A stretch of DNA of 64,000 nucleotides, from the NCBI GenBank assembly GCA_947259195.1, contig CAMYLC010000021.1, positions 56,815 through 120,814 of the forward strand, in the 5' to 3' direction. Position 1 is the stretch's first letter, and the number at the start of each line of letters is the position of its first letter. Below, one piece after another: positions 11,752 to 21,252 of this stretch. A program made the position numbers and the translations under genes. Source of the DNA: Thermoanaerobaculia bacterium (GTDB lineage Bacteria > Acidobacteriota > Thermoanaerobaculia > Multivoradales > JAHEKO01). The notes under the pieces are model-generated. The model was not told the origin of the DNA. It was given only the letters and a program-made list of their open reading frames with translations, and ran no database searches.

Positions 11752-12645
11752 ATGATCTGGAGGAAGCTGGAAAAGAGGGGCCTCGTTCTGCTTGCAGCCC
11801 TGCTTGGAACAGTCGGCTTTCTAGAAGTCGGGGCGCGCGCCGAGGTGGAAGAAGATTCGGTCGACACACAGGATCTGTCGCAGCTTTCCGATCAGGAGAT
11901 CGAGGCCATTCTCCTCGATGGCCGAATTGTAGAGAGGAAACACCTCGAAGTCGGTGTGACTCTGCCGGATCGGCTCTGGCTCGAGCACGACGGCTACCGG
12001 ATGAGCGCTGCTTTCAAACATCTCGATTTGGAGCGCAAGGGACTGACGCATTTCGAGAAGGCGCCTCCCGAGCTCAACTTCAAGGACAGCTTTCGTTACG
12101 AGCGGGCCGCGTATCTGTTGGATCGACTTCTCGGCCTGGAGATGGTGCCGGTGACAGTGCTGCGGAGCGTGAAGGCTCACGAAGGGGCCGTCGTGGCCTG
12201 GGTCGAGGACGCCATCACCGAGCAGGAGCGGTTGCGTCTCAAGCTGGCGCCCGAGGATACTCGGCTTCTCATTCGGCAACGAGCGGCGATGAGGCTGTTC
12301 GACGCCCTGATCTACAACATCGACAACAACCTCGGTAATCAGCTGTGGACACGGCCGGACTGGCGCCTCCATCTCATTGACCACACACGCTCCTTTCGGC
12401 AGCGGAAGAGCCTTCCCGAGGGCTTCTCGAAACGCCCGGTGAGCCTCACCCCGGAGCTCTACGACGTCCTCCGCTCTCTCGAAGAGCCGCAAGTCGAGGC
12501 GGCGCTCGGCAAGGTCCTGAGTCCGGGAGAGATCAAGGCGGTGCTGGCGCGCCAAAAGCTGATCTTGGAGAAGATCGAGCACGATCGCCGAGAGTATGGC
12601 GAACCGTTCGTGTTTCTCGGCATGCCTGTTCCACCAGATTCCTAG
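11752..12645 (+). CDS. Secreted FAM20/HipA-like kinase-fold protein, paralog 1
   Basis: Signal-peptide-like N-terminus; AAFKHLD, SFRYERAAYLLDRLLGLEMVP, IYNIDNNLGNQL, LHLIDHTRSF. Confidence 0.7.
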   Translation: MIWRKLEKRGLVLLAALLGTVGFLEVGARAEVEEDSVDTQDLSQLSDQEIEAILLDGRIVERKHLEVGVTLPDRLWLEHDGYRMSAAFKHLDLERKGLTHFEKAPPELNFKDSFRYERAAYLLDRLLGLEMVPVTVLRSVKAHEGAVVAWVEDAITEQERLRLKLAPEDTRLLIRQRAAMRLFDALIYNIDNNLGNQLWTRPDWRLHLIDHTRSFRQRKSLPEGFSKRPVSLTPELYDVLRSLEEPQVEAALGKVLSPGEIKAVLARQKLILEKIEHDRREYGEPFVFLGMPVPPDS

Positions 12646-12832
12646 CCCGCATTGTTCATCGCCGCGCGAGCAGATTGTGGAAAGCGTCCGCCATCTCTGG
12701 CCAACCGCAAAGAGGAGCACCGGAGGCAACCTTGCAGGTTGTCGAGGAGCGACGAGTGAGGACTGCCCTGAGATGGCGGACGATCTCCGCTACATGTCGT
12801 GGGGCTCATGAATGCTGCGGACCTGGGGGCAA
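12641..12832 (+). repeat. ~190-bp dispersed repeat, copy A (MITE-like or decayed IS end)
   Basis: Roughly 80% identical by eye over ~165 bp to the reverse complement of 31364..31551; imperfect terminal inverted repeats (cctagcccgcattgttcat ... atgaatgctgcggacctgg). Confidence 0.7.
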
Positions 12833-12864
12833 AGATAGGGCCGATAGCGGTGAACCGACCCGAC

Positions 12865-12887
12865 TTGGTCTATATTGAGCAGACCAA
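12865..12887 (+). promoter_or_regulatory. Perfect 7-bp inverted repeat immediately upstream of the RBS of the first NTT-like gene
   Basis: TTGGTCT-atattgagc-AGACCAA followed by aggaggg. Confidence 0.45.
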
Positions 12888-12899
12888 AGGAGGGCTTCG

Positions 12900-18732: not shown

Positions 18733-19146
18733 GTGTCTGAGCTAGCCAGGATCGAAACGGTCGTTTTTCTGCAGAGCGTCGATATCTTCTCCTACTGCAA
18801 GGCGGAGGAGGTGCTGCGGATCGCCGCCATTGCTCAGGAGAGGATGGTAGCCGCAGGAGAGAAGATCTACAGCGCGAACGAGCCGGCGGAGGGCCTGTTC
18901 TGTGTCGTTCGGGGCAGTGTCAAGATCGAGTCTTCAAACGGCGAGACCAAGAATGTCGGCCCCCTGGCGACGTTCGGTGGAATCGACATTCTTCGCAGTC
19001 GCCTGAGGACGGCAACGGCGACGGCCGAGACGGACAGCCTGCTACTGGCCATCGAGAGCGACGATCTTTTCGATCTTCTGTCGAATAACATCGAGATCGT
19101 CAAGGCTCTGTTCCGCCACCTCATCGAACGGTTCCAGGGCGAGTAG
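18733..19146 (+). CDS. Cyclic nucleotide-binding-domain (cNMP/Crp-like sensor) protein without obvious HTH
   Basis: VSELARIETVVFLQSVDIFSYCKAEEVLRIAAIAQERMVAAGEKIYSANEPAEGLFCVVRGSVKIES; GTG start at 18733; RBS-like ggaggag upstream. Confidence 0.75.
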   Translation: MSELARIETVVFLQSVDIFSYCKAEEVLRIAAIAQERMVAAGEKIYSANEPAEGLFCVVRGSVKIESSNGETKNVGPLATFGGIDILRSRLRTATATAETDSLLLAIESDDLFDLLSNNIEIVKALFRHLIERFQGE

Positions 19147-19168
19147 TCTGAAGAGCAAGGAGGCCTGA

Positions 19169-20248
19169 ATGTCCGAGTCCAATTCGACAGCCCACCGCGG
19201 GCGGTGGATCCCTGTTTTGACAGCCCTGCTGATGGTTGTCTGTCTGGCCCCTTACCTTGGCTACGCCCTGGAGGTCCCGGCCAGGGTTTTGGCGATCGGC
19301 GACAGCCATGCCGGGTACGAAGGCCTGGATGCGAGGCTCGCTGCCTTTCCCCCGCCAGGTCCTGAGTCGCAAGGCGCCAAGACGCCGAACCGGGTCTTTC
19401 ATGGTCCCGACGGCGCGCCCTTGCCTTTCCAAACGGTCTCCGAGGTAGAGGAGTTCTTGCGCACGGCGAATGTAGTCGACGTACAGCTCATTGGGGAGGG
19501 CGTCACCAAACCGAAGAGGATCCTCCTGGAAGCTGGCGGCGTCCAGGCGCGGGCGAAGTTCGGTTACTACGATTTCAAGGGACAGGGAGAGAAACTGGCA
19601 GACGGCACGACAGAGATGTACTTCCAGGACAGCTACAAGGCGGACATGGCGGGGTACGTGCTGAGTCGACTACTGGGAATGGAGATGGTGCCGCCCGCTG
19701 TCGCCCGACAGGTGGAGGGTCAGGATGGCATCGTCCAGATATGGATTGAAGATCTGACCAGCTATGAGAGCTGGATTCAGGATGGCAATTCCGGTCAGCC
19801 GGCCTCGCTCTATTTCCAGCGGCAGGTCAAGGACATGAAGACCTTCGATCTGCTGATCCGGAATATCGACCGTCACAGTCGCAACATCAATTGGGACAAC
19901 GACTGGAACCTCTGGCTCATCGATCACACACGCAGCCTGGCCAAGGATGCGACCCTCCGCAAGGAAGACTCCTTCAAGGGTTGCTCCAGGGGGCTCTTCC
20001 AGGCGATTCGAGGCTTGAGCAAGAGCGATTTGGAGGCAGCTCTCGGCCCCTACCTCGGCGGGTTCGAGATCAAGGCACTCCTCAAACGACGGGACAAGCT
20101 CGTGAAGATGATCGAAGGACAGATCAAGAAGCAGGGCGAAGACAGGATTCTGTTCAACTACGGAGATGCACCGCCGGGTCTGGTCATCAGTTACGACGAA
20201 TCTGCTGAGCTGGCGCCGCACGGCGCTGCAGCCAAGAGTGCTGGATAG
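19169..20248 (+). CDS. Secreted FAM20/HipA-like kinase-fold protein, paralog 2
   Basis: Signal-peptide-like N-terminus; GEGVTKPKRILLEAGGVQARAKFGYYDF; SYKADMAGYVLSRLLGMEMVPP; LLIRNIDRHSRNINW; LWLIDHTRSLA. Confidence 0.7.
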   Translation: MSESNSTAHRGRWIPVLTALLMVVCLAPYLGYALEVPARVLAIGDSHAGYEGLDARLAAFPPPGPESQGAKTPNRVFHGPDGAPLPFQTVSEVEEFLRTANVVDVQLIGEGVTKPKRILLEAGGVQARAKFGYYDFKGQGEKLADGTTEMYFQDSYKADMAGYVLSRLLGMEMVPPAVARQVEGQDGIVQIWIEDLTSYESWIQDGNSGQPASLYFQRQVKDMKTFDLLIRNIDRHSRNINWDNDWNLWLIDHTRSLAKDATLRKEDSFKGCSRGLFQAIRGLSKSDLEAALGPYLGGFEIKALLKRRDKLVKMIEGQIKKQGEDRILFNYGDAPPGLVISYDESAELAPHGAAAKSAG

Positions 20249-20337
20249 GGTCCGCCAACCGGCCTCGACTGGTGGTCTGCTGGGCTCGGTGGAGGGTTGA
20301 CTGCTAAACCCGAGAGAGTAGTTTGCGTAATGCAGGT

Positions 20338-21252
20338 ATGAGCGCGGTTCTGCCGGGGTGTCTCCCGTTCGCCTGTGTGTTGGCTCTGGCTACACTGTCG
20401 CCGGCCTCGGCACAGTCGGTGCCTGCCGGAACCTTCGACTCCCGAGTCTTGTTGGGCCCTGATGGAAAGAGCCTCCGGTTAGCCGCCCAGGATGAGATCC
20501 TTGGATTCCTGACCAGTGCCGAAGAACGCTCGGTCACGGTCCTGTCACGTGGAATTACCGGGGCAAAGAGGCTGACCCTGGAACGTGGGGAGACCGCAGC
20601 TCGGGTCATCTTTCATGACGTCGATCGATACGAGCAGAAACTGAAGCGGCTGCCGAACGGCAGGACCGTGATGTATCTGCGAGACAGCTACAAGAGTCAG
20701 ATAGCCGCCTATCGTCTGGGAAGGCTCCTAGGAATGCAGAATGTGCCGCCGACTGTGCTGCGGGTGTCGGGGAGCGCTACGGGCTCAGCGCAGCTGTGGA
20801 TCGAAAAGGCGATGACCGAGGATATTCGATTGAGCGAAGGCCTCGAACCGCCGGACCACAATCTGTGGAACCAGAGCCTGGCCGACATGCAGGTTTTCGA
20901 CAATCTGATCAACAACATCGATCGCAACCAGGGCAATATGTTGGTGGACTCCTTCGGCAATCTCTGGTTAATCGATCACACGCGTGCGTTCGGGCAGGAC
21001 AAGGTGCTCCCACTGCCCGAGATGATCAGTCGGTGCTCGAATTCCATGCTGCAGGCCATCCGCTCGCTGAACGAAGAGACCGTCAGAAAGGAGCTAGCTC
21101 CCTTACTCTCTCGTGTCGAGATCAAGGCGCTTTGGCACAGACGGGCCAGGGTGCTGAAACGAATCGAACAGCAACTTGCATCCAAGGGTCCGGAGTCGGT
21201 CCTGTTCGACTATGGCGATCCCGATCCCGGCGTGACCATTCTGGATGAGTGA
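20338..21252 (+). CDS. Secreted FAM20/HipA-like kinase-fold protein, paralog 3
   Basis: Signal peptide MSAVLPGCLPFACVLALATLSPASAQ; SYKSQIAAYRLGRLLGMQNVPPTVLR; LINNIDRNQGNMLVD; LWLIDHTRAFG. Confidence 0.75.
   Translation: MSAVLPGCLPFACVLALATLSPASAQSVPAGTFDSRVLLGPDGKSLRLAAQDEILGFLTSAEERSVTVLSRGITGAKRLTLERGETAARVIFHDVDRYEQKLKRLPNGRTVMYLRDSYKSQIAAYRLGRLLGMQNVPPTVLRVSGSATGSAQLWIEKAMTEDIRLSEGLEPPDHNLWNQSLADMQVFDNLINNIDRNQGNMLVDSFGNLWLIDHTRAFGQDKVLPLPEMISRCSNSMLQAIRSLNEETVRKELAPLLSRVEIKALWHRRARVLKRIEQQLASKGPESVLFDYGDPDPGVTILDE

What the first reader, a model, noticed from the sequence alone, without database searches (positions are those of the whole stretch)
11752..21252. Candidate extracytoplasmic kinase / nucleotide-translocase locus
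Seen: six consecutive + strand ORFs in the order kinase-fold paralog 1, NTT-like+HEAT paralog 1, NTT-like+HEAT paralog 2, cNMP-binding-domain protein, kinase-fold paralog 2, kinase-fold paralog 3. All three kinase-fold proteins start with signal-peptide-like sequences and keep NID[RN]xxxN and LIDHTR (catalytic- and metal-Asp-like) motifs. Established: NTT/Npt-type carriers exchange adenine nucleotides across membranes, and FAM20-type kinases act in the secretory pathway. Inference: the periplasm normally lacks ATP, so co-located secreted kinases and NTT-like carriers suggest a module that delivers nucleotide outside the cytoplasm and uses it for phosphorylation or nucleotidylation, gated by a cNMP sensor and HEAT scaffold.
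Basis: partly seen in the sequence, partly recalled or inferred. Interest (0 to 1): 0.88.

Follow-up and report, generated by a model that had tools for sequence, protein, structure and literature searches.

The report
Periplasmic kinase–phosphatase module with nucleotide transporter
In an acidobacterium, secreted kinases that resemble animal FAM20 kinases sit beside nucleotide-carrier proteins, and across the phylum the two almost always occur together with a secreted phosphatase, so these bacteria may carry energy-rich nucleotide out of the cell interior to run a reversible phosphorylation system in the envelope.

Summary
In detail: six + strand genes lie where stated (K1, NTT1, NTT2, cNBD, K2, K3). 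AlphaFold models of K1 and K3 match solved FAM20 kinases best. All three carry signal peptides. NTT1/NTT2 are NTT-HEAT transporters, a published family known to pair with cNBDs.

What is new is the linkage. In 152 genomes of the class, all 44 with the kinase also have an NTT (51 do; p=3e-31). Across 396 phylum genomes, all 79 kinase genomes have one. K2 is a scar of such a fusion: a congener has the intact gene, and here 1,152 bp (the phosphatase) are deleted in frame.

Best reading: an envelope kinase/phosphatase module fed by an ATP/ADP-type exchanger and gated from the cytoplasm by the HEAT/cNBD parts. The module is well supported by comparison; nucleotide export and kinase activity are inferred. 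Cautions: NTT1/NTT2 keep only one of two nucleotide-binding lysines of AtNTT1, and K2 and K3 lack the Lys–Glu ion pair.

The parts
11752..12645 (+). K1: secreted FAM20-like kinase-fold protein, canonical pair Lys/Glu kept, catalytic and metal Asp kept
   Evidence: (profile 1.5e-92); AlphaFold pLDDT 89, FAM20 top Foldseek hits
12900..15776 (+). NTT1: 12-TM NTT carrier domain (1-440) plus C-terminal HEAT repeats
15831..18710 (+). NTT2: second NTT-HEAT paralog, 59% identical to NTT1; in the class sample the close adjacent pair is seen only in the window's genus
18733..19146 (+). small cyclic-nucleotide-binding-domain protein (probable start GTG 18733)
   Evidence: PF00027 1.4e-15; start and spacing read from the sequence; cNBD genes follow or are fused to NTT-HEAT in other genomes
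19169..20248 (+). K2: secreted FAM20-like kinase-fold protein, Gly/Asp in place of Lys/Glu, derived from a phosphatase-kinase fusion
   Evidence: (sister of the L016 fusion, 98/97)
19274..19327 (+). remnant of the start of the PPP phosphatase domain (VPARVLAIGDSHAGYEGL); 1,152 bp deleted in frame at about 19328
   Evidence: against the fusion in congener G050 (L077:9702-11319, runs off the contig end); the same remnant in P0241 and P0242
20338..21252 (+). K3: secreted FAM20-like kinase-fold protein, His/Gln type

Best explanation
The locus is one form of a phylum-wide envelope phosphorylation module. NTT-HEAT proteins in the inner membrane exchange cytoplasmic ATP (or another nucleotide) for the spent nucleotide in the periplasm; secreted FAM20-like kinases use it to phosphorylate periplasmic or cell-surface targets (protein or glycan); a secreted Shewanella-like PPP phosphatase, often part of the same polypeptide, removes the phosphate. 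The HEAT repeats and cNBD lie on the cytoplasmic side and would regulate the carrier. Shown by computation: folds, secretion signals, topology, co-occurrence, adjacency, phosphatase partner. Inferred: direction of transport, substrate, kinase activity, targets, regulation. In this genome K1 is the kinase of the locus with a complete active site; K2 and K3 may act as FAM20A-like partners or have an altered site.
For: Three-way co-occurrence in 152 class genomes: kinase 44, NTT 51, phosphatase 45; all 44 kinase genomes have an NTT and 43 the phosphatase (p=3e-31 and 3e-34). At genus level 25/25 against 3/47. In 396 phylum genomes 75 of 79 kinase genomes have an NTT at 1e-30 against 37 of 317 others; the last four also have one by Pfam. 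Adjacency in several gene orders and orientations and as fusions. Phosphatase-kinase fusions in sister lineages, and K2 is the in-frame deletion product of one. FAM20 fold. The phosphatase matches Shewanella PPase I at 1e-50 with the PPP metal motifs. All kinase- or phosphatase-domain proteins examined have an N-terminal hydrophobic segment ahead of the domain; 30% of control neighbours reach the same cut. Positive-inside topology puts HEAT in the cytoplasm. The beta3/alphaC pair covaries (KE, RE, HQ, HN, QN, GD) while the catalytic Asp is kept in all but one of 41 proteins and the metal Asp in all.
Against: No transport or kinase assay exists. AtNTT1 K155 (ADP site) is Tyr and E245 is not acidic in both carriers; K527 is kept and E385 is Asp (PMC3306366, PMC10654386). 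K2 and K3 lack the Lys-Glu ion pair. In some genomes, such as most of family f13, the kinase genes are unlinked to the NTT. A carrier could equally import nucleotide.
Confidence: 0.52

Rival explanations
1. Scavenging: NTT-HEAT imports nucleotides or nucleotide-like compounds from the periplasm; the secreted phosphatase processes phosphorylated compounds, and the FAM20-fold proteins bind or trap nucleotides instead of phosphorylating targets.
For: Characterised NTTs of intracellular bacteria import nucleotides (PMC5381601); many kinase-fold members lack the Lys/Glu pair, as FAM20A, a pseudokinase that still binds ATP, lacks the Glu (PMC7948968).
Against: The catalytic Asp, Asn and metal Asp are nearly invariant across the family; the fused phosphatase is of the protein-tyrosine-phosphatase type; many members keep K/E or R/E; a scavenging route has no evident need for a kinase fold.
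Confidence: 0.17
2. The NTT-HEAT proteins have left nucleotide transport and carry another substrate or act as membrane sensors; the secreted kinase-phosphatase pair belongs to the same pathway but gets its nucleotide elsewhere or uses another donor.
For: Two of four key AtNTT1 residues are changed; NTT1 and NTT2 also match MFS_1; no NTT-HEAT member had been characterised in the 2017 survey (PMC5381601).
Against: Whole-domain profile match to solved ATP/ADP carriers at 5e-33 and 2e-28; K527, the ATP-site Lys, is kept in both; a related neighbourhood also holds a single-domain NTT next to the kinases (L062).
Confidence: 0.22
3. Variant of the best explanation: the kinases modify glycans or lipids of the envelope (like FAM20B) rather than proteins; the rest of the module works as in the best explanation. 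(Overlaps with it, so the confidences do not add to 1.)
For: FAM20B, a glycan kinase, is thought to be the older activity in animals (PMC5865150, PMC7948968); the Hydra Fam20-with-sugar structure is the top hit of K1; type II PI 4-kinases are the next fold matches.
Against: Fold cannot tell substrates apart; the partner phosphatase family is known for Tyr-phosphatase activity.
Confidence: 0.3
4. The linkage is accidental or reflects shared ancestry only.
For: Related genomes are not independent samples.
Against: Presence and absence switch together inside several families of the class (f2, f7, f10, f13, f18 among them); gene order and orientation vary; 21/44 adjacent by chance has p about 3e-33.
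Confidence: 0.03

Closest known systems
NTT-HEAT and NTT-HEAT-cNBD proteins (Major et al. 2017, PMC5381601)
   Same: Same domain order; an NTT-HEAT gene immediately followed by a cNBD gene was described there, as were fusions of the three domains.
   Different: That paper does not mention kinases at all and found no function; here the gene is tied to secreted kinase and phosphatase genes, and is duplicated in tandem in one genus.
FAM20 secretory-pathway kinases (FAM20A, FAM20B, FAM20C)
   Same: Fold; catalytic and metal Asp; beta3-Lys/alphaC-Glu pair present or lost; secreted; work where ATP must be brought in by a transporter (last point from general knowledge of the secretory pathway).
   Different: About 15-19% identity; bacterial; often fused to a phosphatase; K3 scores 26.4 bits against the Pfam Fam20C cut-off of 26.8; the His/Gln pair has no FAM20 counterpart known to me.
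CotH spore-coat kinase of Bacillus
   Same: A bacterial protein kinase related to Fam20C (PMC12189002).
   Different: Not directly compared here; no NTT or phosphatase partner is mentioned for it in the passages read.
Shewanella-like PPP phosphatases (Shelphs)
   Same: The partner domain matches Shewanella PPase I structures at 1e-50, with the PPP metal motifs.
   Different: Fused to or next to a FAM20-like kinase and an NTT; lost from K2 in this window.
NCBIfam TIGR03843 (SCO1664 family)
   Same: All three kinases match weakly (1.7e-10 to 1.8e-18).
   Different: Best score 66.8 against a cut-off of 172.4, so not members.

Membership tests
FAM20-type kinase fold | FAM20 structures are the best structural matches | tested here: met
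   K3: top 21 PDB hits all FAM20; K1: FAM20 in most top ranks; TM-score by query length 0.52-0.64
FAM20-type kinase fold | catalytic Asp and metal Asp | tested here: met
   present in K1, K2 and K3, near-invariant in 120 relatives
FAM20-type kinase fold | beta3 Lys and alphaC Glu of an active kinase | tested here: inconclusive
   K1 K/E (met); K2 G/D and K3 H/Q (not met); paralogs R/E or K/E
Pfam Fam20C PF06702 | score above the gathering cut-off | tested here: inconclusive
   K3 26.4 against 26.8, yet its database copy carries PF06702 in a newer Pfam version and the genome search scores it 28 with neighbours; K1 and K2 below
NTT/TLC transporter family | Pfam TLC score and 12-TM carrier domain | tested here: met
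   56.4 and 51.0 bits against 21; 12 hydrophobic segments in each carrier domain; profile E 5e-33 to 9j3n
ATP/ADP-specific NTT | K155, E245, E385, K527 of AtNTT1 | tested here: not met
   Tyr, Ser/Ile, Asp, Lys by alignment; residues from PMC3306366 and PMC10654386, mapped by a chain-numbering offset
NTT-HEAT(-cNBD) operon of Major et al. | NTT domain with C-terminal HEAT and an immediate downstream cNBD gene | tested here: met
   22 bp between NTT2 and cNBD
Shelph PPP phosphatase (module partner) | GDxHG, GDxxDRG, GNHE, HGG motifs and match to Shewanella PPase I | tested here: met
   in partner genes of other loci and in C41/C49 paralogs, not in this locus; three partners read ADVHG at the first motif and a few lack the last GHT motif
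TIGR03843 | score above the curated cut-off 172.4 | tested here: not met
   40.7, 45.9 and 66.8 bits
Anti-phage defence system | matches to defence-specific models | tested here: not met
   only generic HEAT and cNBD resemblance and a weak hit to PDC-M66A (1e-5) in PADLOC
Extracytoplasmic phosphorylation system | phosphotransfer outside the cytoplasm | not testable with these tools
   needs biochemistry

The most novel reading that the evidence does not exclude
Acidobacteriota possess a dedicated, reversible, nucleotide-fuelled phosphorylation system in the periplasm: an NTT-HEAT ATP/ADP exchanger exports the gamma-phosphate, FAM20-like kinases (with pseudokinase-like partners) write, a fused Shelph phosphatase erases, and a cytoplasmic cNBD sets the supply. 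It would be a bacterial counterpart of secretory-pathway phosphorylation in animals.
Probability: 0.42. Interest if true: 0.93.

Novelty: new variant of a known kind. Interest (0 to 1): 0.82.

Why it matters
The periplasm is generally held to lack ATP, so kinases there are a puzzle and most envelope regulation is assumed to be ATP-free. A carrier, a secreted kinase and a secreted phosphatase that are kept together across a phylum make envelope phosphorylation directly testable. They also give the functionless NTT-HEAT family its first firm partners, and offer a bacterial parallel to FAM20 kinase and pseudokinase pairs.

Tried and rejected
Chance or frozen gene order: rejected by co-occurrence and varied gene order. 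Defence system: PADLOC gives only generic or weak hits. Plasmid-borne element: no close plasmid match. Assembly artefact for K2's missing phosphatase: rejected, since two other assemblies hold the same 359-aa form at 92-93% identity. A first guess that K2's GDSHAG stretch might be coincidence (7.4 bits alone, absent from the G049 copy) was overturned by the fusion in G050. The genome-contig scan with NTT2 gave only four loci. Ten literature searches found no paper linking FAM20-like bacterial kinases with NTTs; subscription journals are not covered. The 20 neighbourhoods were partly chosen because the genes looked close, so adjacency rates are quoted only from the unselected class sample.
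Full report
What is there. The window is part of contig 21 of a 4.3 Mb draft genome; its nearest named relatives are Acidobacteriota and Thermoanaerobaculia metagenome genomes. Six + strand genes run from 11752 to 21252: K1, NTT1, NTT2, a small cNBD protein, K2, K3. NTT1 and NTT2 are 59% identical and are TLC/NTT carriers with C-terminal HEAT repeats. The cNBD gene starts 22 bp after NTT2 and ends 22 bp before K2, so these three look co-transcribed (sequence; inference).

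Kinase fold. Sequence alone gives weak matches (Fam20C 6e-6 and PI3/PI4 kinase 2.6e-5 for K3). AlphaFold models from family alignments are confident (K3 pLDDT 89, pTM 0.84; K1 89, 0.82). Foldseek against the PDB ranks FAM20 structures first for both, followed by or mixed with type II PI 4-kinases. The catalytic Asp, the Asn five residues on, and the metal Asp are near-invariant in 120 close relatives.

An altered nucleotide site. The residues aligned with the FAM20C beta3 Lys and alphaC Glu covary across the family: K/E, R/E, H/Q, H/N, Q/N and, in K2, G/D. Among the 120 closest relatives of K3, 103 are H/Q. K1 is K/E. Covariation of two sites that touch in kinases is independent support for the fold. 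In FAM20A a Gln (Gln258) replaces that Glu; FAM20A is a pseudokinase that binds ATP in reverse and activates FAM20C (PMC7948968). So K2 and K3 may be partners or have a changed chemistry; the conserved catalytic Asp argues against simple decay. The mapping of these two sites onto FAM20C rests on my own alignment to the known FAM20C motifs, helped by the AlphaFold fold match.

Secretion and topology. K1, K2 and K3, and all kinase- or phosphatase-domain proteins checked in the mapped loci, have a strong N-terminal hydrophobic segment just ahead of the domain; some have lipobox-like sequences; 30% of control neighbours reach the same threshold. The carrier domains of NTT1 and NTT2 each show 12 hydrophobic segments; NTT1's even loops are K/R-rich and its odd loops are not, which places both ends, hence HEAT, in the cytoplasm (a simple hydropathy rule, not a dedicated predictor).

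Carrier. An NTT-HEAT profile matches the solved Chlamydia-type and Arabidopsis ATP/ADP carriers at 5e-33 and 2e-28. Of the four residues that AtNTT1 needs (PMC10654386, PMC3306366), K527 (ATP site) is kept, E385 is Asp, K155 (ADP site) is Tyr and E245 is Ser or Ile in both proteins. NTT-HEAT substrates are thus open. Positions were transferred by a constant offset of 84 between chain and precursor numbering, which puts K, E, E and K at the four places in the AtNTT1 chain.

Linkage. In 152 genomes of the class the kinase profile hits 44, all within the 51 with an NTT hit (Fisher p=3e-31; by genus 25/25 against 3/47, p=2e-16). The seven NTT-only genomes are two at 65-66% completeness and five whose best hits are about 26-31% identical, mostly without the HEAT part. 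In 396 genomes drawn across the phylum 79 have the kinase; 75 have an NTT at 1e-30 against 37 of 317 others (p=4e-47), and the other four have one above the Pfam cut-off. Presence and absence switch together within several families of the class, which weakens the objection of shared ancestry.

A third partner. Genome paralogs on contigs 41 and 49, and the gene after NTT-cNBD in L016, are signal peptide + phosphatase + kinase fusions. The phosphatase domain matches Shewanella PPase I, a Tyr phosphatase of the group that gave Shelphs their name, at 1e-50, with the PPP metal motifs. It is found in 45 of 152 class genomes, including 43 of the 44 kinase genomes (p=3e-34); the exception is 74% complete. 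My tally: kinase within about 3 kb of the NTT in 21 of 44, phosphatase in 27, either in 31; chance would give about 0.3 for the kinase. Arrangements vary: NTT-cNBD-fusion; phosphatase-NTT with the kinase convergent; NTT-HEAT-cNBD fusion with the phosphatase next door; NTT pairs with several kinases.

K2 is the scar of a fusion. K2 is the sister of the L016 fusion kinase (98/97 support). In the congener G050 the same position holds the phosphatase-kinase fusion, cut only by the contig end. Aligned to it, the window lacks 1,152 bp (384 codons) in frame, leaving VPARVLAIGDSHAGYEG from the phosphatase's first motif. Two other metagenome proteins carry the same scar and others have lost even that. 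So this lineage dropped the local phosphatase domain, while three phosphatase-bearing genes remain elsewhere in the genome.

Mechanism. The parts fit a cycle: carrier exchanges ATP for ADP, kinase turns ATP into ADP outside, phosphatase returns the target to its resting state. An exchanger loses no net nucleotide, which suits a periplasm. AtNTT1 works as a counter-exchanger influenced by ADP, ATP and Pi (PMC3306366). The cNBD would set the rate from cytoplasmic cNMP; Major et al. proposed a role of this sort for NTT-HEAT-cNBD (PMC5381601). Direction, substrate, targets and regulation are inference.

Novelty. NTT-HEAT-cNBD is known, FAM20-like bacterial kinases are known in CotH (PMC12189002), and Shelphs are known. 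Their conserved union was not found in the papers searched. I rate it a new variant of a known kind (secreted FAM20-type phosphorylation), with a possible step up to a categorically new bacterial system if export is shown.

Noticed in passing
window 11289-11744: HD-GYP-type gene reduced to its last part: 876 bp are missing in frame relative to the congener L077, and L014 also has the longer gene; a second large in-frame deletion close to that in K2.
   Followed up: partly
window 4946-6175: DUF2252 protein (PF10009, 1e-20), a family I recall as kinase-like, 5.6 kb upstream of K1.
   Followed up: no
window 8938-11430; L009:3936-6633; L010:8103-10820; L052:11119-13704: Hanks-type Ser/Thr kinase + TPR genes recur beside the FAM20-like kinase or NTT genes; may be a cytoplasmic partner.
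   Followed up: partly
L016:3707-5458 and L017:4734-6416: FHA-GAF-SpoIIE phosphatase gene directly upstream of NTT-HEAT in two genomes; absent from this window's locus.
   Followed up: partly
L008:12378-13223 (about 1.6 kb upstream of the window): Fourth FAM20-like secreted protein (R/E type) at the end of what looks like a mevalonate-pathway gene cluster.
   Followed up: partly
window 24612-25847 and L008:4256-8726: A GcpE/IspG homolog (MEP pathway) lies about 30-35 kb from apparent mevalonate-pathway genes in the same genome.
   Followed up: no
window 23138-23491: Short-chain dehydrogenase ORF that covers only the N-terminal part of the domain, possibly a broken gene.
   Followed up: no
L062 (G312:C19:183000-202000): Expanded locus with four kinase-fold genes, a single-domain NTT, a phosphatase and two NTT-HEAT genes; one kinase-fold copy (8971-9819) has lost the catalytic Asp.
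   Followed up: partly
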